Source of the DNA: a virus
DNA: 26,836 nt
Direction: 5' to 3' (one strand)
IMG/VR virus record: IMGVR_UViG_3300032053_000432
Location: 1 to 26,836 of that record
The notes below the pieces were generated by a model. That model saw nothing but the letters and a program-made list of their open reading frames with translations. It was not told the origin of the DNA and did no database searches. The translations under genes were made by a program, and so were the position numbers. Of the stretch, positions 2-26,836 are shown in pieces; position 1 is the first letter of the stretch; each line of letters begins with the position of its first letter.

Positions 2-640
2 CCCCTCATCCGCAGGCTGCGCCAGCGTCAGGACCTCGACCGGTTCTACCTGTACGATGACTTCGCAACCTGCATGGACCCGGGCGAGACCCTCCAATAC
101 TGGGGTACGGCAAAGTCGGCAAGCTCGACGGTGCTGCCCATATCCGACGGGTCGCTGGAATTCCACGTGGCCAACGGGGACGCCGCTGGGTTTGCGACCC
201 TCCACAAAATGCACAAGGGTCAGTACTCCGTCGCCAAGCGCGCCCAGATGAGAGGGCGGTTCAAGCTCAGTCGCACCACGGACATCAATTGCCAGATCTC
301 GTTCTACGGGACCGCCGCCAACGCCATTGTGATGCTGACCTATGACACCCAGATCAGCGTAGTGGACCCGACCCACTGGATCTTCATCACGGACAACGCC
401 TCCGGCAACGAGAAGCACGACAGTGGGGTTGTGGCGACCCCCACCGTCTGGCACGAGTTTGAGATCAAGTGCCTGGCGTCGAACAAAGCGGAGCTGTGGC
501 TCGACGGAGCGTTGATCTGCACGAACACCACGTACATCCCGACCCAGGTCATGGAGCCGTCGTTCGCGGTCAGCACCTACACGACCACGGGACCGTACAT
601 GTACTTGGACTGGATAGAGTTGGAAGGGGACAGGCTCTAG
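2..640 (+). CDS. Lectin-like (LamG/jelly-roll) virion protein, 5' partial
   Basis: The frame is open from the left edge, so the true start lies outside the window; the first internal ATG is at 74. The visible 212 residues are beta-rich and end with a pattern typical of LamG/concanavalin-type jelly rolls: a WHEFEI strand, then a LWLDG hairpin, then a terminal DWIELEG strand. A DDF motif near the visible start matches the same family. Such domains bind glycans or form virion appendages. The next gene, one base downstream, has the same strand order and looks like a paralogue. Because the pair precedes the head-tail connector genes, it could decorate the head or neck rather than the tail tip; that is inference. 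Fold call moderate, role uncertain. Confidence 0.7.
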   Translation, partial: PLIRRLRQRQDLDRFYLYDDFATCMDPGETLQYWGTAKSASSTVLPISDGSLEFHVANGDAAGFATLHKMHKGQYSVAKRAQMRGRFKLSRTTDINCQISFYGTAANAIVMLTYDTQISVVDPTHWIFITDNASGNEKHDSGVVATPTVWHEFEIKCLASNKAELWLDGALICTNTTYIPTQVMEPSFAVSTYTTTGPYMYLDWIELEGDRL

Positions 641-641
641 C

Positions 642-1250
642 ATGCCCCTCCGTAAGTTCGACCCCGCCTCCGCCGTGGGCGGTCACCAGTGGATCACCGA
701 TGACTTTGGCGGGGCCCTGTATGATTGCTACATGTGGGGCTTGGTTGGGGGCTCTGGGTCCATTCCGGTTGTGGCCTCCGCCGTCGGCGGGCTGATCGTG
801 GTCAGAGCGGACGCCAGCAACTACTACGAGCTGGCCGCGCTGTACCCGCAGTTCACGGTGGCCAGGAACTTCCAGATCACCTGGCGGGGCAAGCTCGAGT
901 CCCTCACGACCAGCCGGGCGGCTTGGGGGTTGCAGACGGACGTTAACAACCGGGTCGAGTGGATCTACGAGGCGGCGCTAGGGGCGAACTGGCGATGCCG
1001 ATCCGTGGCCAGCTCAACGGGCACGGTCGTGGCGTCCGCCGTTGCTGCGGATACCGCCTTCCACGAGTTCACGATGGTGAGCGCCACGGGCTTGGTTCAC
1101 TTCGCCCTGGACGGCGTTCCCATCACCACTATCACGACCAACCTCCCAACGGGGGCCCTTGGTCCGTTCATCCGCTCGACCAGCACTGCGGCCGGGACGC
1201 GGGACGTGACGACGGACTGGGTCGAGGCTTTCTGCGACAGGACGGCGTGA
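642..1250 (+). CDS. Lectin-like (LamG/jelly-roll) virion protein
   Basis: This 202-residue protein starts at ATG 642, just after the previous TAG. It repeats the upstream protein's architecture: a DDF motif near residue 25, a mid-protein strand-rich core, then FHEFTM, a FALDG hairpin and a terminal TDWVEAF strand. The shared HEF...LDG...DWVE series suggests gene duplication. No signal peptide or membrane segment is seen, as expected for a virion part assembled in the cytoplasm. The likely role is glycan binding or surface decoration of the particle; the ligand cannot be told. A 122-base gap follows, the first break in the gene run. Confidence 0.72.
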   Translation: MPLRKFDPASAVGGHQWITDDFGGALYDCYMWGLVGGSGSIPVVASAVGGLIVVRADASNYYELAALYPQFTVARNFQITWRGKLESLTTSRAAWGLQTDVNNRVEWIYEAALGANWRCRSVASSTGTVVASAVAADTAFHEFTMVSATGLVHFALDGVPITTITTNLPTGALGPFIRSTSTAAGTRDVTTDWVEAFCDRTA

Positions 1251-1368: not shown

Positions 1369-1374
1369 GTCGTG

Positions 1375-2505
1375 ATGTTCCGATTCCACGTGGTAGGGTT
1401 CCCGCACACCGCAACGTCCAAACACGCGTTCCTGCACTGCGGCTACACACAGAAGGTCCTCAACTTCTGCAAGATGATGCTCGCCCGAGGGCACACCGTT
1501 TATCACTACGGTGGGGAAGGCTCGGATGTGGAGTGCACCGAGCATGCCCAGATCGCAACCAGGGCAGAGCGGGAGGGGTGGTTCAAGTCCGACTGGGACA
1601 AGGGCGAGTTCCCGGACATGGAGTTCAACCCCGGCAAGCCCTACTGGCAGACCTTCAACTCCCGTGCGGTCATGGCCATCCATGACCGAATCCAGCCGCG
1701 TGACTTCATCTGTTTGATCACGGGCGGCACTCAGAGGTCCATAGCGGATGCCTTCCCCAAGAACCCTTCCGTCGAGTACGGCGTCGGGTATGAGGGCATC
1801 TCTCTCCCGTTCAGGTGCTTTGAGAGCCGTGCATGGCAGCACCACGTCTATGGACTCTACGGCATCAGGAACGGGGTTTGGTACGACACGGTGATCGGCA
1901 ACTACTACGACCCCACTGACTTCCCGATGGGCAAGCGACAAGGTGACTACTTCCTCTTCCTGGGCAGACTGATCCAGCGCAAGCTCCCTCATGTCGCTGC
2001 CGACGTATGCAAGCGGATCGGTGCAAGGCTCCTCATCGCAGGCCAGGGCGTGACCCTCAAAGAGCCGGGGAAGATCTACTCGCGGGAACTGTGCGTGGTC
2101 GGGGACCACGTGGAGCACGTGGGGGTCGCCAATGTGGAGCGCCGGGCTGAACTGTTGGGCAACGCCAGGGCGTTGTTCGTGATGACCCAATACATAGCAC
2201 CGTTCGAGGGCGTCCACATCGAAGCCAACCTGTGTGGCTGCCCTGTCATCACAACCGACTGGGGCGTGTTCCCGGAGACCGTGGAGAACGGGGTCAACGG
2301 CTATCGTGTTCGCACGATGGGCGAGGCTATGTGGGCCGCCCAGAACGTGGCCAAGCTCAACCCTGACAGGATCAGGGAACGGGCGATAACCCGGTTCTCG
2401 CTCGAGGCTGCTGCTCCGCAATACGAGGAATGGTTCCGCAGGATCGACGGGTTGCATGTACCCGGTCACGATTGGTATGACCAGAGCGCAGGCAGGTTCG
2501 AGTGA
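1375..2505 (+). CDS. GT4-like glycosyltransferase (GT-B fold)
   Basis: About 376 residues. ATG 1375 is preferred over GTG 1372 because AGGTAGGT (1363-1370) is better spaced for it. Residues below count from GTG 1372. The C-terminal half has the GT-B donor-site pattern: FLGR (196-199) opening the second Rossmann domain, LLIAG (220-224), and APFEGVHIEANLCGCPVI (276-293) followed by TTDWGVFPETV. This matches the GT4 EX7E region, but the first Glu is Ala276; Glu284 is kept. The family transfers a sugar from a nucleotide donor with retention of configuration; donor and acceptor cannot be read. The stop overlaps the radical SAM start (GTGA), so the two are probably translated together. A role in glycosylating virion proteins or host envelope is inference. 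Confidence 0.85.
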   Translation: MFRFHVVGFPHTATSKHAFLHCGYTQKVLNFCKMMLARGHTVYHYGGEGSDVECTEHAQIATRAEREGWFKSDWDKGEFPDMEFNPGKPYWQTFNSRAVMAIHDRIQPRDFICLITGGTQRSIADAFPKNPSVEYGVGYEGISLPFRCFESRAWQHHVYGLYGIRNGVWYDTVIGNYYDPTDFPMGKRQGDYFLFLGRLIQRKLPHVAADVCKRIGARLLIAGQGVTLKEPGKIYSRELCVVGDHVEHVGVANVERRAELLGNARALFVMTQYIAPFEGVHIEANLCGCPVITTDWGVFPETVENGVNGYRVRTMGEAMWAAQNVAKLNPDRIRERAITRFSLEAAAPQYEEWFRRIDGLHVPGHDWYDQSAGRFE

Positions 2506-3740
2506 GGGTCCTGCTGGTCAACCCGCCCTTCTTCCGCTTCAGCGGCCTGGAACAGGACTACGTCCCTTTGGGCTTGCAGGCCGTCGGCTCACAGTTGGCC
2601 GAGGACGGCCACGAGGTAGCGGTCAAGAACCTTGAGGTGGGCTCTGGCCTCGGTTACCAGGGTTATGAGGCCCGTGCCAGCGGGTTCGACCGCTACCTCG
2701 CGGCCCTCACCGACCCCGAGCACGCGGTATGGCAGGAGCTACGCCAGACGATAGAAGCTTGGAAGCCGGACAAGCTTGGCGTGAGTGTCCTCAACGTCAA
2801 GCACCGTGCATTCCGGGTCATCCATCACATCGCCGTGGGGTACGGGCTGCCTGTGTTCGTTGGAGGACCCCACACGGTCATCGACCCTGGAGCATACCCG
2901 CCCGGGGTTGAGGTGATGCCTGGGGAGTTCGAGTCACACGGGGGTCGGCTCGCGAGTCTCGACCAGACTCCAATGCCAAACTTCGATATCCTGCTGGATA
3001 GTTACTCGCCAGACGCCCACGCCCACTTGATGACTTCCAGGGGCTGCCCGTTCCGTTGCAGGTTCTGCTCCTCGAAGGCTCTGTGGAAGCGGCGGGTCAC
3101 CTACAAGTCCGTGGATCGCATCCTGGCTGAGATGCAACAGGTCCACGACCGCTATCGACCCGAGTGGTTCACCTTCTGGGATGAGACCTTTACCGCCCAC
3201 AAAGGCCGGTTGCAGGAATTCTGCTCCCGTTACTTCCTGTCCACGGCCTGGCGATGCGACACCAGGGCAGACCGCCTTGACGACCTGACGGTGAAGATGA
3301 TGGTTGCCGCAGGCTGCGGTCAGATGAGCATTGGCATCGAAAGCGGGGTTGACCGCATCCTGAAGTACGTTTGGAAGGACGAGACCACGACACACCTCAG
3401 GCGGGCGGCCGAGGTGTTGAACAAGCACCGCGTGAGATGGAAGGCATACCTCATCATCGGGTTCCCCGAGGAGACGGAGGAAGACATCCGGGAGACCGTC
3501 GCGTTTGCCAAGAGCCTACAGCCGTTCCGCATCACCCTCAGCTTGTTCACGCCCTACAAAGGGACACCGCTGTTTGGTGAGTGTGTGGAGCGGGGGCTCA
3601 TCACGGACAACTATGATGTCAACGACCTGTTCCACCAGCGGTCCAGCGGGTTCTGCCCTGACCTGACACCAGCCTTACGAGAGGAAGCGATGAAGGATGT
3701 GGACGAGTACAATGCGGAAGCGGTGCTGACATGGAAATGA
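2502..3740 (+). CDS. Radical SAM protein with B12-binding-like N-terminus
   Basis: 412 residues from GTG 2502, overlapping the upstream stop by four bases. Residues 1-150 match the cobalamin-binding Rossmann domain of class B radical SAM enzymes: LLVNPP at 4-9, PLGLQAVGSQL, LGVSV, VFVGGPHT (118-125) and MPGEFE (139-144). The cluster motif CX3CX2C is at Cys182, Cys186 and Cys189, binding a 4Fe-4S cluster that cleaves S-adenosylmethionine. WDETF (226-230), GIESG (278-282), LIIGFPEET (317-325) and FTPYKGTPLF (349-358) complete the usual radical SAM core. Members with this layout often methylate unreactive carbon or phosphorus atoms; the substrate here is unknown. The N-terminal domain has no obvious DXHXXG, as is normal for this class. 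It is flanked by a glycosyltransferase and a methyltransferase, which points to a sugar or modified-residue pathway. Confidence 0.88.
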   Translation: MRVLLVNPPFFRFSGLEQDYVPLGLQAVGSQLAEDGHEVAVKNLEVGSGLGYQGYEARASGFDRYLAALTDPEHAVWQELRQTIEAWKPDKLGVSVLNVKHRAFRVIHHIAVGYGLPVFVGGPHTVIDPGAYPPGVEVMPGEFESHGGRLASLDQTPMPNFDILLDSYSPDAHAHLMTSRGCPFRCRFCSSKALWKRRVTYKSVDRILAEMQQVHDRYRPEWFTFWDETFTAHKGRLQEFCSRYFLSTAWRCDTRADRLDDLTVKMMVAAGCGQMSIGIESGVDRILKYVWKDETTTHLRRAAEVLNKHRVRWKAYLIIGFPEETEEDIRETVAFAKSLQPFRITLSLFTPYKGTPLFGECVERGLITDNYDVNDLFHQRSSGFCPDLTPALREEAMKDVDEYNAEAVLTWK

Positions 3741-4888
3741 CCTGGGATGACCACCAGCGGTGGGAGTTGGACTGCTGGAACAACCTGTACAACCGATGCT
3801 GTGCTACCTTCGACGAGGAGCAGAAACAGCAAGCCTACGCCCCGCTGATGGGTCTCACGTTGGACCGGCTCTACCGGGTGACAGGGTGCGAGGGCAAGAC
3901 GATCCTGGACCTCGGTGGAGGGCCGGTATCCTTGTTGCTGAAGACCCCCGGGGTGCTAGGTGTTGTTGTTGACCCGTGCCTCTACCCAGACTGGGTGAGG
4001 TCAAGGTACGCCGCCCTAGGCATCGAGCAGGTCGTTCTCCCAGCGGAGGGGTACACCGGCAATGGCTTTGACGAGGTGTGGATCTACAACGTGTTGGCAC
4101 ACGTGAAGGACCCTGAGGCAGTCATCCACACCGCGAGGCGGGCAGCCAAGGTGCTGCGGCTGTTTGAGTGGGTAGGGTATGGGCCAGGCCCTGGCCACCC
4201 TCATGCGTTGTCGGCTGAGGTGTTGTCGCAGTGGGTTGGGCACGTGTGTGAGGCGACACTTGTCACCCATTCCACGGGCTCAGGGAATGCCGTGCACGGC
4301 CATTGGGAGGTGACCCCGTCTACCCACCTGGGCGGCTATCTGGCCAAGGATGATGCCCACCCCAACGGAGACCCGTGGACCTGGACCCCAGACCTGTGGC
4401 AGTTCCTGCTAGACGCCCTGCGGCCTAAGACATTGCTCGACCTCGGGTGCGGCGAGGGGCACTCGACCAAGTGGTTCTACGACCATGGCGTGGACGCGTT
4501 TGGAGCGGACGGGTGCCCGTCCGCTAAGGCCGCCACGGTACTCCCCTCTGGACGCTTTATTCTCCTCGACCTCACGACCGAGACGCTTCACAGCCAGGTG
4601 GACATGGTCTGGTGTTGCGAGTTCCTGGAGCACGTGGAAGAGAAGTACCTCGGCAACGTGCTGGAGGCGTTCAGCCGATCGAACGTGGTGTGCCTCACCC
4701 ACGCCTTCCCTGGGCAACAGGGGCACCACCACGTCAACTGTCAGCCCCGGGAGTACTGGGTGGCCAAGATGGCGTCCATTGGGTTCAAGTTGGACGAGCG
4801 GTTGACGCTGGGTTCCCGGGTCTTCACCCCACCTCCCATGCATTGGGGCAGAAGTGGTATGATCTTCCGAAGGGCTTGGGATGGCTGA
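3731..4888 (+). CDS. Fused double SAM-dependent methyltransferase
   Basis: 385 residues. The start at 3731 overlaps the radical SAM stop by ten bases; GGAAG at 3716-3720 supports 3731 over the ATG at 3737. Two class I methyltransferase domains lie in series. Domain 1 (about 50-195) has motif I ILDLGGGP (58-65), a VVVDP acidic-loop strand, and DEVWIYNVLAHV. Domain 2 (about 225-385) has motif I LLDLGCGEG (235-243), GADG, and DMVWCCEFLEHV, then HHHVNCQPREYW (332-343). Both glycine-rich loops look intact, so both halves may bind SAM. Fused or paired methyltransferases of this kind are known in phage virion gene clusters and near sugar-modifying genes; targets are generally not known. The last eight bases overlap the next gene. 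Confidence 0.88.
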   Translation: MEMTWDDHQRWELDCWNNLYNRCCATFDEEQKQQAYAPLMGLTLDRLYRVTGCEGKTILDLGGGPVSLLLKTPGVLGVVVDPCLYPDWVRSRYAALGIEQVVLPAEGYTGNGFDEVWIYNVLAHVKDPEAVIHTARRAAKVLRLFEWVGYGPGPGHPHALSAEVLSQWVGHVCEATLVTHSTGSGNAVHGHWEVTPSTHLGGYLAKDDAHPNGDPWTWTPDLWQFLLDALRPKTLLDLGCGEGHSTKWFYDHGVDAFGADGCPSAKAATVLPSGRFILLDLTTETLHSQVDMVWCCEFLEHVEEKYLGNVLEAFSRSNVVCLTHAFPGQQGHHHVNCQPREYWVAKMASIGFKLDERLTLGSRVFTPPPMHWGRSGMIFRRAWDG

Positions 4889-5111
4889 CCCTTCGTACAA
4901 AGCGGTACGGGAGTTGTTTGCCCAGCTTCTGGAGAAGCTGTCGGTCATCGAGGAACGGCTGGTCATGCTGGAGACCAACGGGACGCTAGTCCAGAATGCG
5001 TTAGCTAGGCATGGTCGGAGGATTGAGGAGTTGAATAGCAGGTGTATTGAGCGCCTGGGCAAGCTCTGTCCTATGAACGGCATGGACGAACCAAAGGGCG
5101 AGGGGCAATGA
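4881..5111 (+). CDS. Small coiled-coil protein
   Basis: 76 residues from ATG 4881, overlapping the methyltransferase end by eight bases. Residues 8-58 show leucine/isoleucine-rich heptad spacing (LFAQLLEKLSVIEERLVMLE and onward), so a coiled coil or trimeric stalk is likely. The tail is charged and short. It ends in an ATGA overlap with the next gene. I do not recognise a named family. A linker or oligomerisation subunit for the beta-rich proteins that follow is possible. Confidence 0.65.
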   Translation: MADPSYKAVRELFAQLLEKLSVIEERLVMLETNGTLVQNALARHGRRIEELNSRCIERLGKLCPMNGMDEPKGEGQ

Positions 5112-9971: not shown

Positions 9972-12900
9972 ATGGCCCAGAAACGGTTTGGACCAACTCA
10001 GGATGCAGGCACGGTCATTCTCGAGAAGGAAGCCGAGAAGACGATCCAGGCGCATACCCTAGGGTCGACGGCCTACGCGGGTATCCTGGAACGCGGGGCG
10101 GTGGGCAGCCTCATCATCACGTCCGGCAAGCGGGACCTGCTGGCCAAGACCGGAGGACTTATCCCTGACAGTCTACTGCCGGACGCGGCACAGCACTTCT
10201 GGGATCACTCCAAGGGCGCGGGCATCCTGTTCCTATACCGCGTGGACGACGGCTCAGGGGTCCGTTCCAGCTTGACCTTGTGGGACCGCAAGAACCCCCG
10301 CAACAAGGTCATCCGTGTTGACGCCAACAACGTCGGCAAGTGGGCGGGGAAGAGGGACACGGTTGTGGTCGACCTGACAGCGGTGCCAGGTGACATCACG
10401 GCTACCGTCATCACCCTGCCGATGGGATACCTCGTCCCGAAGAACAAATGGAAGGGTGGCCTCCTGAAGCTGACAGGCTCGGGGGTGTCCTATTCCATCG
10501 TCTCCAACACAGCCGGGACGGCTGGCGTCCGTGCCACGGTCACATTGGCAGGCGACAGCCGGGCCCTGACGGACTTCGGGCTCGCCACGGACAGGGAGTG
10601 CACCCTCACCCTGGACAACCTGAACGAATGGGGCCTCGAGAAGAAACTGGCGGTGGAGGTCCTGGATGGTCAGCTTCACCCGACCACGGAGTGGGGGCTC
10701 AAGGTCTACGTCAACGATGAACTGGTAAGGAACTACCCCGACCTCTCTTCGGACCCGAATGCTGCCAACTACTACGTGGGCGTGATCAACAAGGACACGT
10801 CCAACGTGTTCATCACGGTCACCGACCTGTGGACTGGAGCCAACACGGCAGACGTACGCCCGGCCAACTGGTTCGGGGCGGTCGCGTCCACGGCCATCAC
10901 CGCGCTAGCGGCTGCGCTCAACACCTTGTGTGTGCGCGTGGACAGCAGCCTGGCTGGGCCGAACACCATCGCCCTCTTCACCTACGGCACCGAGGTCATC
11001 CCAGACACCTACGAGCTGGAGGTGATGTCGACAGGCCCGACGGTCTGGCGACTGAAGTCCCTCGACAAGCAGGCGACGCACACTTTCACCGCACCAGCGG
11101 ACACCGTCGCCTACGCGGCAGACAACCCCAAGTCCATCGGTTTCACGGTGACAGGGGGTGGCGTCGCGGCCGCGACCCTGCTCGGCACGCTGCCGGGCCC
11201 GTGGAACCTGGCCCCAGGTGACACCCTCGTAGGCGCGGTCGACAGGGCGGCAGACCAGACCGCTACGTTCACGGCGAGCGGGGCAGCCCGGGAGAACGCA
11301 CCCGCCGAGACCTACCATATCGACAACCTCTGGACGCTTCTGGTGAAGGTCGACGGGGGCGCGGTTCAGACCATCGTGTTCACCGCTGCCACGGACTTCG
11401 TCGACCACGCTGCGGCCACAGCGGAAGAGGTGGCCGCTGCTATCAACCGCCAGATCGTCGGAGCGAGCGCAACCGCTACCACGGCCGGGACCAAGGTGAC
11501 GATCACCAGCGACAAGAAGGGCTACGGCTCCTTCATCGAGGTCACGGGCGGTACGTCCAATGGCGTCCTTCTGTTCAACACGGCTGAGACCCGGGGCATC
11601 GGGAATGACGGAGCTGGACACAACTTCCTCGATATCGATGCCGTCTCCTTCGCCGAGTTGAAGCCCATCCTCGAGACCGCCTTCAGCAATACCGGAGGTG
11701 TGGTATGCACCGAGGTCGCGGGCTGCCTCCGCATCACGACCCATGGAACAGGCGCTGGGATGTACCTCCAGGTCCAGGCGGGGTCCAGTTGTGAGGGCAT
11801 CTTCGGGCTCTCCACTGTCGAGGTCGAGGGTTCCGGTGGCGTGCCGACACCAGGGGAGAAGTTCACCATATACGTCCTCCCACTCCTGGAGGACGAGGCG
11901 ATCAACGGGCGAATCTTCTACCCGGACGTTGCCCTGGCGCCGAAGGCCGGTTGGATCGTTTCCGACAACACGGAGGTCGGGGTCTCCATCGCAACCGGGG
12001 ACCTGACCATCGGCGGGACCATCGGTGGAAACGTGAAGGTCAGACTCCAGTACCGCCAGACCCTGATGGGTGGGTATGACGGGATCCATGACCTGGCGTC
12101 CCATGACTTCAGCCCTGCTTACGACCCGAGCACCTCTCCGTTCAACCAGACGGAGGGGCAGGGGTACGGGCTGATCAAGCACGCCACGCCGGGCATCTGG
12201 AAGATCGGCGGGAACGTGGACGCGACCACGGTGCAGAAGGCTGGCCAGGCGTACGCCGACCAAAAGAACCACCAATTCCGTTTCGAGTTCCAGGACACGA
12301 TCACCGACGAGTTTGTCGCCAAGGCGTACCTCGACACGATCGGGAGGAGCGATTACGAGAAATGCATATTCCCGAGTTACGCCAGCATCGCTGACCCTGT
12401 GAAGGACGGGGTCCTCAAGCTGGTGTCGGTCACGGGCATGGTTCATGGGGTCGAGGCAAGGACGGCGAAGGACTACGACGGCTACCACAAGGTGGCGGCT
12501 GGCATCTACGCCCAGCTACCACTCATCAAGGAACTCCCGATTGGGGACGTCAAGCTGAACGGCGAGGTGCTCAACCCGGCAGGAATCCCGAGGATCGAGC
12601 GCAAGGGTGGCAACTACATCATATGGGGCGCTCGGCTGCCGTCGCTCGACCTCGGCTGGAAGTGGTGTCAGCAACGGGAACTGATGTCCTACTATGAGCA
12701 CGTCCTGTCCGAGTCCTTCGACTGGATCATCTTCGCCATCAACGATGAGTTGGAGCAACCTGCGGCTGTGGCTGCTCTCCAGAGCTTCTTCCAGCCGGAG
12801 TGGAGGAAGCGGGCGCTTCGAGGCGCCACGTTCGAGGAGGCGTGTGAGATCAAGATGGATGCGGAGAACAACACCAACGCCACCAGAGCTGCCGGGGACA

Positions 12901-22764: not shown

Positions 22765-25212
<2,448 letters not shown>

Positions 25213-25230: not shown

Positions 25231-26836
25231 ATGGCTTACACCATCACCCAGCGGTCACGGATAACGGCAGCGGATGGCGCTGTTCTAGACCAATTTGGTT
25301 GTTCGATAGGATTAAACGCCAACACTCTTATCGTAGGCGCTCAAGGCGTTGACGGTGCGGGGCACCCATACTGTGGCGCAGCGTACATCTATACTAGGCC
25401 AGCCATAGCCGGTGTTTGGTCGCTACAGCAAAAGTTGCAGGAGACTTTCCCGGCATACTTCGAGGAGCCCCTCCCTGTCCCTGGCGGGTATTGGCCGTAC
25501 AATCTTCCGTTCAGGAGAAGCTACAAGAACCCATACTATGGCTGTTTGGTCGGCCTGTGGCAGGCAAACATTGCGGCGGTTGCGGTCCGTCTACCGTGGG
25601 ATGCCGCGTGGGAGCCACTGTATGAATCATGGGCCAGCCACTATCACCCAATGGATCCTTTCGGCACTTGTACGTTTGGCTACTGCGGTGGTCCGTGGCA
25701 GGTGATTACCTATGCACGGGCGGCCGGTGTGTGGAGCCAGTTGGCCATTGGGAAGTTGGACCCTCTGGACTATTACGCCTACACGGCACCTGCTAATCCT
25801 TGGCCAGACCCCAGCGGAGTGCCCACGTCCATCCGCGCGTTTCCGTATTCCATCTCCTCCCTTGCTGTGGGCGATGGAATTGTAGCTGCGGGTTGCATCC
25901 AGCGGAGTTGGAACGAGTCCGTGTTTAGTTACTACGGGGTAAATTCCCACCACGGGTCCGGTGCGGTTACGGTGTTCAGCGGAGGGTCGGAGGTTTGTTG
26001 CATCGATGACCCGGACAAGCACCCGGGGGAGTTTGTCACTCCCTTCCCCTACTACGATAACCGCTTCGGGTCAAGTGTCTCCATTTGTCCGTTGACTGGG
26101 ACAACGATGGTGATTGGTGCCATCAAGGCGCTGGGTGGTTCTGGTCGAGGGCGGGTGTATGTCTTCACAGGTTCTGGTGGCAGCTGGTCCCTTCAACAAA
26201 CCATATCCCCTGCCACGGGGTCTTGTTCGACCTTTGGAACGAGTGTGGCGGTCTATGGCGACTACCTGGTTGTCGGCGCCCCCACGCTGGTCCGTGGGGA
26301 GGTCCATATCTATAAGCGAACGGGCGTGGTCTGGGCTGAGCAGGCGTTGCTTACAGACGCCGCTGGGGCTCGTTTCGGGTCCACAGTTGGCATTGACAAA
26401 AACACCGTGCTCGTCGGCGACCCAATGGTGGGCGCCGGGGCCTACGGACAGATCTCCGCCTACTACCGGGCTGGGACAACCTGGACCCTGGTCGGTAGAA
26501 AATACTCCACCCCAACAGGCAACAGCGAGTACATGACCCAGCAAGGCGTGGCCGCCCTTGGAGATGGCGTACCGACCTACATGGCTGCGGTGCAGAGGTA
26601 TTCCGCCGGGGCTAACACAGGGGCGGTAGTTGAGTTCTATGTGGCCAGTCCAGGACCGGGCTACCCGAGCATCACCAACAATTCCCCGCTGTGGTCGGGG
26701 GTGCTCCCTAACGTGGACCTTACCTTCCAGTTGATAGACCCAGACCTGCGCGCCGACTTGGACCCCACCAAGACCCGGGTATGGGTCAACGGCGCCGTGA
26801 TCTACGAAAACGAGGTGCCGGTCAGTGGCTGGTTTG
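25231..26836 (+). CDS. FG-GAP (integrin-like) beta-propeller tail protein, 3' partial
   Basis: Read by hand: ATG 25231 begins a frame open to the window edge (535 codons, no stop). An in-frame TAA at 25222 and a weak ribosome site (TAGGT, 25210-25214) mean it may depend on coupling to the collagen gene. Seven units of about 45-70 residues can be seen (near 20-69, 100-170, 203-257, 276-325, 333-378, 381-425 and 432-474). The clear ones have the FG-GAP form: FGCSIG...LIVGA, FGSSVS...MVIGA, FGTSVA...LVVGA and FGSTVG...VLVGD, each followed by a Gly-x-V/I-x-h-Y/F strand and often a W-S/A-x-x-Q turn. This is the fold of integrin alpha heads. After 475 an Ig-like segment starts (LTFQLIDPDL, TRVWVNGAVIYEN). 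Ten cysteines are unusual for a tail protein. Likely an adhesin. Confidence 0.85.
   Translation, partial: MAYTITQRSRITAADGAVLDQFGCSIGLNANTLIVGAQGVDGAGHPYCGAAYIYTRPAIAGVWSLQQKLQETFPAYFEEPLPVPGGYWPYNLPFRRSYKNPYYGCLVGLWQANIAAVAVRLPWDAAWEPLYESWASHYHPMDPFGTCTFGYCGGPWQVITYARAAGVWSQLAIGKLDPLDYYAYTAPANPWPDPSGVPTSIRAFPYSISSLAVGDGIVAAGCIQRSWNESVFSYYGVNSHHGSGAVTVFSGGSEVCCIDDPDKHPGEFVTPFPYYDNRFGSSVSICPLTGTTMVIGAIKALGGSGRGRVYVFTGSGGSWSLQQTISPATGSCSTFGTSVAVYGDYLVVGAPTLVRGEVHIYKRTGVVWAEQALLTDAAGARFGSTVGIDKNTVLVGDPMVGAGAYGQISAYYRAGTTWTLVGRKYSTPTGNSEYMTQQGVAALGDGVPTYMAAVQRYSAGANTGAVVEFYVASPGPGYPSITNNSPLWSGVLPNVDLTFQLIDPDLRADLDPTKTRVWVNGAVIYENEVPVSGWF

What the first reader, a model, noticed from the sequence alone, without database searches (positions are those of the whole stretch)
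1375..4888. Glycosyltransferase / B12-type radical SAM / double methyltransferase cassette among virion genes
Three enzymes are coupled by overlaps and sit between structural genes, not with nucleotide or DNA-modification genes. The combination could build a methylated sugar or modified residue on virion proteins. The Thr-rich collagen tract in the same cluster is a plausible target: spore BclA collagen repeats carry O-linked glycans that include a methylated sugar, and some mycobacteriophages glycosylate their virions. This would be a radical SAM-dependent virion modification, which I do not know to be described.
Basis: inference. Interest (0 to 1): 0.72.

Follow-up and report, generated by a model that had tools for sequence, protein, structure and literature searches.

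The report
Phage collagen-fibre glycosylation gene cassette
This virus of bacteria carries three overlapping enzyme genes that most likely attach and decorate sugars on its own collagen-like fibre proteins; the sugar-attaching gene family repeatedly sits beside collagen-like genes in unrelated phages and bacteria, while the added radical enzyme seems peculiar to this virus.

Summary
The cassette is real: a GT4 glycosyltransferase (1372-2505), a radical-SAM enzyme with a B12-type N-terminal domain (2502-3740) and a two-domain methyltransferase (3731-4888), coupled by 4- and 10-base overlaps inside a myovirus structural module. The GT family (phrog_3408) neighbours Gly-X-Y collagen-like genes in cyanophages and other phages, and in 20 of 23 non-actinobacterial genome loci, almost always just upstream. 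The window's methyltransferase halves are the usual partners: the N-half family (phrog_3603) adjoins or is fused to this GT in most of its loci; the C-half is fused to the GT in 23. A near-identical longer contig carries a 1760-residue Gly-X-Thr protein upstream, and 69-75% of Y positions in this virus's two collagens are Thr. Best reading: O-glycosylation of collagen-like fibre Thr, methylated by the MT. The radical-SAM step is the new part: its nearest solved fold is AprD4, a sugar-acting diol dehydratase, so deoxygenation rivals C-methylation, and only one close homologue was found. Against: actinobacterial members and some marine phages carry the GT without nearby collagen. No biochemistry; donor, linkage and acceptor are inferred.

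The parts
1372..2505 (+). GT4-type glycosyltransferase, phrog_3408 family
   Evidence: Pfam 4e-14; phrog_3408 2e-78; AlphaFold pLDDT 89 and best Foldseek matches UDP-sugar GT4 enzymes
2502..3740 (+). Radical-SAM enzyme with B12-binding-type N-terminal domain; CxxxCxxC intact
3731..4888 (+). Two-domain methyltransferase: N-half phrog_3603 (residues 15-192), C-half Methyltransf_11 (from about residue 224)
4881..5111 (+). 76-aa ORF overlapping the methyltransferase by 8 bases; no family match
74..640 (+). Lectin/concanavalin-like ORF, cut by the contig end (weak, below cut-off)
   Evidence: 3keto-disac_hyd 0.0075, Polysacc_lyase 0.0049
642..1250 (+). Second lectin-like ORF, no family match
   Evidence: resemblance to the first judged by eye
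22768..25212 (+). Collagen-like fibre protein, 147 Gly-X-Y triplets, Thr in 75% of Y positions: candidate acceptor
   Evidence: Pfam Collagen 3.7e-11; composition

Best explanation
The cassette is a virion-protein modification operon. The GT4 glycosyltransferase transfers a sugar, probably from a UDP donor, to Thr hydroxyls at the Y position of Gly-X-Thr repeats in the phage's collagen-like fibres (the 1760-aa protein beside the cassette in the sister contig and the 814-aa protein at 22768-25212). The two-domain methyltransferase O-methylates the sugar. The radical-SAM enzyme makes a further change on the sugar or its precursor: C-methylation if it uses cobalamin, or AprD4-like deoxygenation if not. 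The likely use is to stiffen or hydrate the low-proline triple helix and vary the outer surface. Shown by computation: gene identities, overlaps, conserved association of GT and MTs with each other and with collagen genes, Thr-rich Y positions. Inferred: acceptor, donor, order of steps, virion location, benefit, and everything about the radical-SAM substrate.
For: GT relatives lie beside collagen genes in cyanophages ACG-2014f and S-CAM7, in other environmental phages and in bacteria: 20 of 23 non-actinobacterial loci have a Gly-X-Y tract within 1 kb, 3.5 expected by random placement. Dereplicated viral loci: 16 of 29 within 3 kb, 6.3 expected. Viral records of 30 kb or more with the GT encode Pfam Collagen in 26 of 29, against 2 of 29 control records; within one phage lineage, 3 of 4 GT+ against 3 of 27 GT- records. 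Partners recur: MT C-half fused to GT in 23 loci, phrog_3603 beside or fused to GT in most of its loci, 2OG-FeII_Oxy_3 hydroxylase family immediately upstream in about 13. Thr is 379/548 and 111/147 of Y residues; published means are 31.6-48.3% (PMC8968730). Precedent: SgtA, encoded beside bclA3, puts GlcNAc on Thr of the BclA3 collagen region (PMC7157674). The rSAM's nearest solved fold, AprD4, acts on a sugar.
Against: No biochemical or mass-spectrometric data. Thr at Y is common in bacterial collagens, so it is weak evidence. Actinobacterial members mostly lack nearby collagen: 2 of 13 within 1 kb. At least three phages carry GT + phrog_3603 beside a dCMP deaminase, one also near a C5 DNA methylase. 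At 1 kb the viral adjacency is not significant: 4 observed, 2.4 expected. The window GT lacks the first Glu of the usual EX7E motif, although a Glu appears three residues on. The rSAM has no other close homologue, so its tie to the cassette rests on overlaps in two near-identical contigs.
Confidence: 0.6

Rival explanations
1. The cassette modifies a host surface polysaccharide or glycolipid during infection, for example to exclude other phages; the nearness to collagen fibres reflects a shared host-interaction region.
For: GT4 enzymes mostly make polysaccharides, glycolipids and small molecules; phage GTs near tail fibres have been read this way (PMC7029224); actinobacterial members are not near collagen.
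Against: Does not explain why the same GT sits directly beside collagen genes in bacteria, or the hydroxylase partners.
Confidence: 0.2
2. The GT and MTs modify phage DNA bases.
For: In at least three phages GT + phrog_3603 lie beside a dCMP deaminase, in one also near a C5 DNA methylase.
Against: No base-modification gene was recognised in the window; nearest solved folds are sugar and small-molecule GTs; most GT and phrog_3603 records carry collagen.
Confidence: 0.06
3. The GT and MTs act on collagen, but the radical-SAM gene is a passenger or acts on another substrate.
For: Close rSAM relatives are absent elsewhere; no other viral B12-type rSAM found lies beside this GT family or a long collagen gene.
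Against: It overlaps both neighbours, has matching GC and GC3, and its catalytic cysteines are intact.
Confidence: 0.2

Closest known systems
Clostridioides difficile SgtA / BclA3
   Same: A GT gene beside a collagen-like gene; the enzyme puts GlcNAc on Thr of the collagen region (PMC7157674)
   Different: The SgtA product is beta-linked (inverting), whereas GT4 enzymes are retaining (own knowledge), so probably another GT family; spore, not virion; no rSAM described there
Mimivirus L230 collagen lysyl hydroxylase-glucosyltransferase
   Same: A virus encoding its own collagen-modifying GT (PMC9614988)
   Different: Acts on hydroxylysine with a different domain architecture; no MT or rSAM described; eukaryotic virus
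Bacillus BclA glycosylation
   Same: Thr-rich collagen repeats carrying O-glycans that include methylated sugars (methylation from own knowledge)
   Different: Spore protein with host-encoded sugar pathways
Cyanophage ACG-2014f / S-CAM7 collagen-GT-hydroxylase loci
   Same: Same GT family beside collagen; in ACG-2014f also the phrog_3603 protein
   Different: 2OG-Fe(II) oxygenase present and no rSAM annotated there; function unreported in what I found
AprD4 radical-SAM diol dehydratase and MgmA glutamine methylase
   Same: Nearest solved folds of the rSAM (Z 29.5 and 27.2)
   Different: 22-26% identity; substrates differ; no AprD3-like reductase recognised in the window

Membership tests
phrog_3408 GT4 glycosyltransferase | Full-length profile match | tested here: met
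   E 2.3e-78, residues 3-370 of 377
phrog_3408 GT4 glycosyltransferase | EX7E motif of retaining GT4 enzymes | tested here: inconclusive
   Second Glu (E284) kept; the first is Ala276, with a Glu at 279, as in a subclade with GPFE in place of EPFG
B12-dependent radical-SAM methylase (class B) | CxxxCxxC and radical SAM domain | tested here: met
B12-dependent radical-SAM methylase (class B) | Cobalamin-binding domain | tested here: inconclusive
   Pfam B12-binding above cut-off; cobalamin binding was not tested
B12-dependent radical-SAM methylase (class B) | Methyl transfer activity | not testable with these tools
   The nearest fold is a dehydratase, close to methylases
AprD4-type radical-SAM diol dehydratase | NCBIfam AprD4 equivalog cut-off | tested here: not met
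   88.4 bits against a cut-off of 500; fold nearest to AprD4 all the same
Collagen-directed protein glycosylation system | GT encoded next to collagen-like genes | tested here: met
   1760-aa collagen upstream in the sister contig
Collagen-directed protein glycosylation system | Glycan on the collagen protein | not testable with these tools
   Needs mass spectrometry

The most novel reading that the evidence does not exclude
A phage-encoded radical-SAM-dependent modification (C-methylation or deoxygenation) of sugars O-linked to a virion collagen fibre, as one variant of a broad phage and bacterial collagen-modification module (GT, MTs, hydroxylase).
Probability: 0.38. Interest if true: 0.78.

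Novelty: new variant of a known kind. Interest (0 to 1): 0.63.

Why it matters
It gives a phage glycosyltransferase family with hundreds of viral members (545 related stretches) a concrete, testable substrate. Phage GTs have usually been read as DNA- or LPS-modifying. If right, collagen triple helices in phage fibres are modified proteins, with consequences for how fibre stability and surface are understood and for recombinant collagen engineering, and bacteria with the GT-collagen pair share the pathway.

Tried and rejected
Close rSAM relatives in IMG/VR and GTDB: only the near-identical contig was found, so family context could not be used for it. rSAM-first neighbour search: none of 79 viral rSAM loci carried this GT or a long collagen neighbour. 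Streptomyces phage SF3 rSAM (28.5%): beside a thymidylate kinase and a NUDIX gene, not comparable. Caulobacter phage Cr30 MT hit: no collagen annotated nearby, early region. Single-linkage dereplication at 65% collapsed 59 loci into one group and gave a weak test; replaced by greedy 75% and DNA-tract placement. Clostridia genome-level test: only 3 GT-positive genomes, all with collagen, against 97 of 288 others. First phage-lineage control query was too specific. No paper found that links phage collagen to a dedicated GT.

Full report
Observation. The window is one IMG/VR virus record of 26,836 bases. The three genes are present at the stated place, on one strand, overlapping by 4 and 10 bases. 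The first is a GT4-type glycosyltransferase, the second a radical-SAM enzyme with a B12-binding-type N-terminal domain, the third two class I methyltransferase domains in a row. GC and GC3 match the neighbouring structural genes, so the cassette does not look recently foreign. The right-hand part of the window is a myovirus structural module: head-tail adaptor, sheath, tape measure, then collagen-like and FG-GAP proteins (the sheath match is weak, 0.0065).

A wider view of the same virus. A near-identical contig of 34,931 bases (IMGVR_UViG_3300037137_001020, locus L002) extends the locus upstream. There, just before the lectin-like pair and the cassette, lies a 1760-residue ORF whose bulk is 548 Gly-X-Y triplets. 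Thr fills 69% of Y positions, and 75% in the 814-residue collagen of the window. Reported means are 31.6% for bacterial collagens and 48.3% for Gram-positive ones (PMC8968730), so these are high, but Thr at Y alone is not specific. The pieces of the operon and a plausible acceptor are therefore neighbours.

Comparative test in viruses. The GT family phrog_3408 has hundreds of viral relatives (545 related stretches). In cyanophage ACG-2014f the order is collagen repeat protein, hypothetical, phrog_3603 (the window's MT N-half), GT, 2OG-Fe(II) oxygenase, hypothetical, tail fibre. In S-CAM7 two Gly-X-Y proteins precede the GT, a second GT-like gene and the oxygenase. Many of the top 80 IMG/VR loci show the same picture, with an oxygenase-family gene (Pfam 2OG-FeII_Oxy_3 in the representative tested) immediately upstream in 13 and the window's MT C-half fused to the GT in 23. 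phrog_3603 loci, sampled independently, have this GT adjacent or fused in most cases. So the window's GT and both MT halves form a recurring set; only the arrangement differs.

Comparative test in bacteria. Of 36 GTDB loci, 23 are not actinobacterial; 20 of these have a Gly-X-Y tract within 1 kb of the GT, 19 of them upstream, against 3.5 expected when the GT is placed at random in the same loci. Most are Clostridia and other Bacillota, where Thr again dominates the Y position (378 of 650). Actinobacterial members mostly lack collagen nearby (2 of 13); in one of them the neighbours are cyanophycin-synthetase-like and acyltransferase genes.

Controls. Viral records of at least 30 kb with the GT encode Pfam Collagen in 26 of 29 cases; 29 records chosen for carrying a B12-type rSAM do so in 2 (Fisher p about 1e-10). 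That control is not matched for lineage, so I took records sharing a gene found downstream of the GT (neck-like; the name is my guess): 3 of 4 with the GT have collagen, 3 of 27 without it do (p 0.016). Two of the GT-positive records look like near-duplicates, so this is weak. After dereplication at 75%, 16 of 29 viral GTs lie within 3 kb of a tract against 6.3 expected; at 1 kb the excess is not significant. Records are fragments and related, so the p-values are indicative. The p of 5e-14 for the bacterial loci treats loci as independent and used an expected rate averaged over them.

Counter-evidence. In phages L216, L222 and L274, GT + phrog_3603 sit by a dCMP deaminase, and in L216 a C5 DNA methylase lies about 3.5 kb away. 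Of 16 phrog_3603 records tested, 12 still encode collagen, L222 among them but not L216. So the family may have other targets in some phages.

The radical-SAM enzyme. No NCBIfam model among those shown reaches its cut-off. AlphaFold gives pLDDT 84.5 with weak stretches in the N-terminal domain. The best VIA matches are AprD4 (Z 29.5, 371 residues, 3.1 A), MgmA (27.2), TsrM (26.0) and OxsB (25.6). AprD4 removes a sugar hydroxyl together with a reductase, AprD3 (PMC5461906); the others include C-methylases and a ring-contraction enzyme (OxsB, own knowledge). Both C-methylation and deoxygenation of a sugar fit the setting, and fold does not decide. In the two cyanophage loci an oxygenase lies next to or one gene from the GT; whether the rSAM replaces it functionally is speculation.

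The glycosyltransferase. AlphaFold pLDDT 89; the best solved relatives are UDP-sugar GT4 enzymes (tll1591, tetrahydrobiopterin glucosyltransferase, BshA, AviGT4). The window protein and a subclade carry A/GPFE where most members have EPFG in the EX7E motif: one glutamate seems to have moved. This may alter the donor or, less likely, impair activity.

Knowledge. Collagen glycosylation by a gene next to the collagen gene is established for SgtA/BclA3 (PMC7157674), and a virus-encoded collagen GT for Mimivirus L230 (PMC9614988). I found no report of a phage system of this kind in the open library searched, which does not hold most subscription journals.

Verdict. New variant of a known kind.

Noticed in passing
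window ~1349; L002 8720-8871: The window lacks roughly 100 bp just upstream of the GT that the near-identical contig keeps; the extra stretch encodes a short hydrophobic ORF (ATGCTGCTATTGATCCTGGTC...).
   Followed up: partly
window:1372-2502, residues 276-284: Correlated EPFG to A/GPFE change in the GT EX7E motif, shared with L004, L005, L016-L018, L056, L058 and L169.
   Followed up: partly
L175, L183, L197, L204 and other Bacillota loci: A conserved gene pair, collagen-like protein then phrog_3408 GT, in Clostridia; a possibly undescribed collagen glycosylation pair in bacteria.
   Followed up: partly
L216, L222, L274: GT + phrog_3603 placed beside a dCMP deaminase (near a C5 DNA methylase in L216), away from fibre genes.
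   Followed up: partly
window 25231-26836: FG-GAP repeat protein (FG-GAP_2, 1.4e-28), open at the contig end, directly after the collagen fibre gene.
   Followed up: no
window 10905-12488 and 22869-24278, minus strand: Long antisense ORFs (527 and 469 aa) opposite the sheath and collagen genes, probably a by-product of GC-rich codon use and repeats.
   Followed up: no
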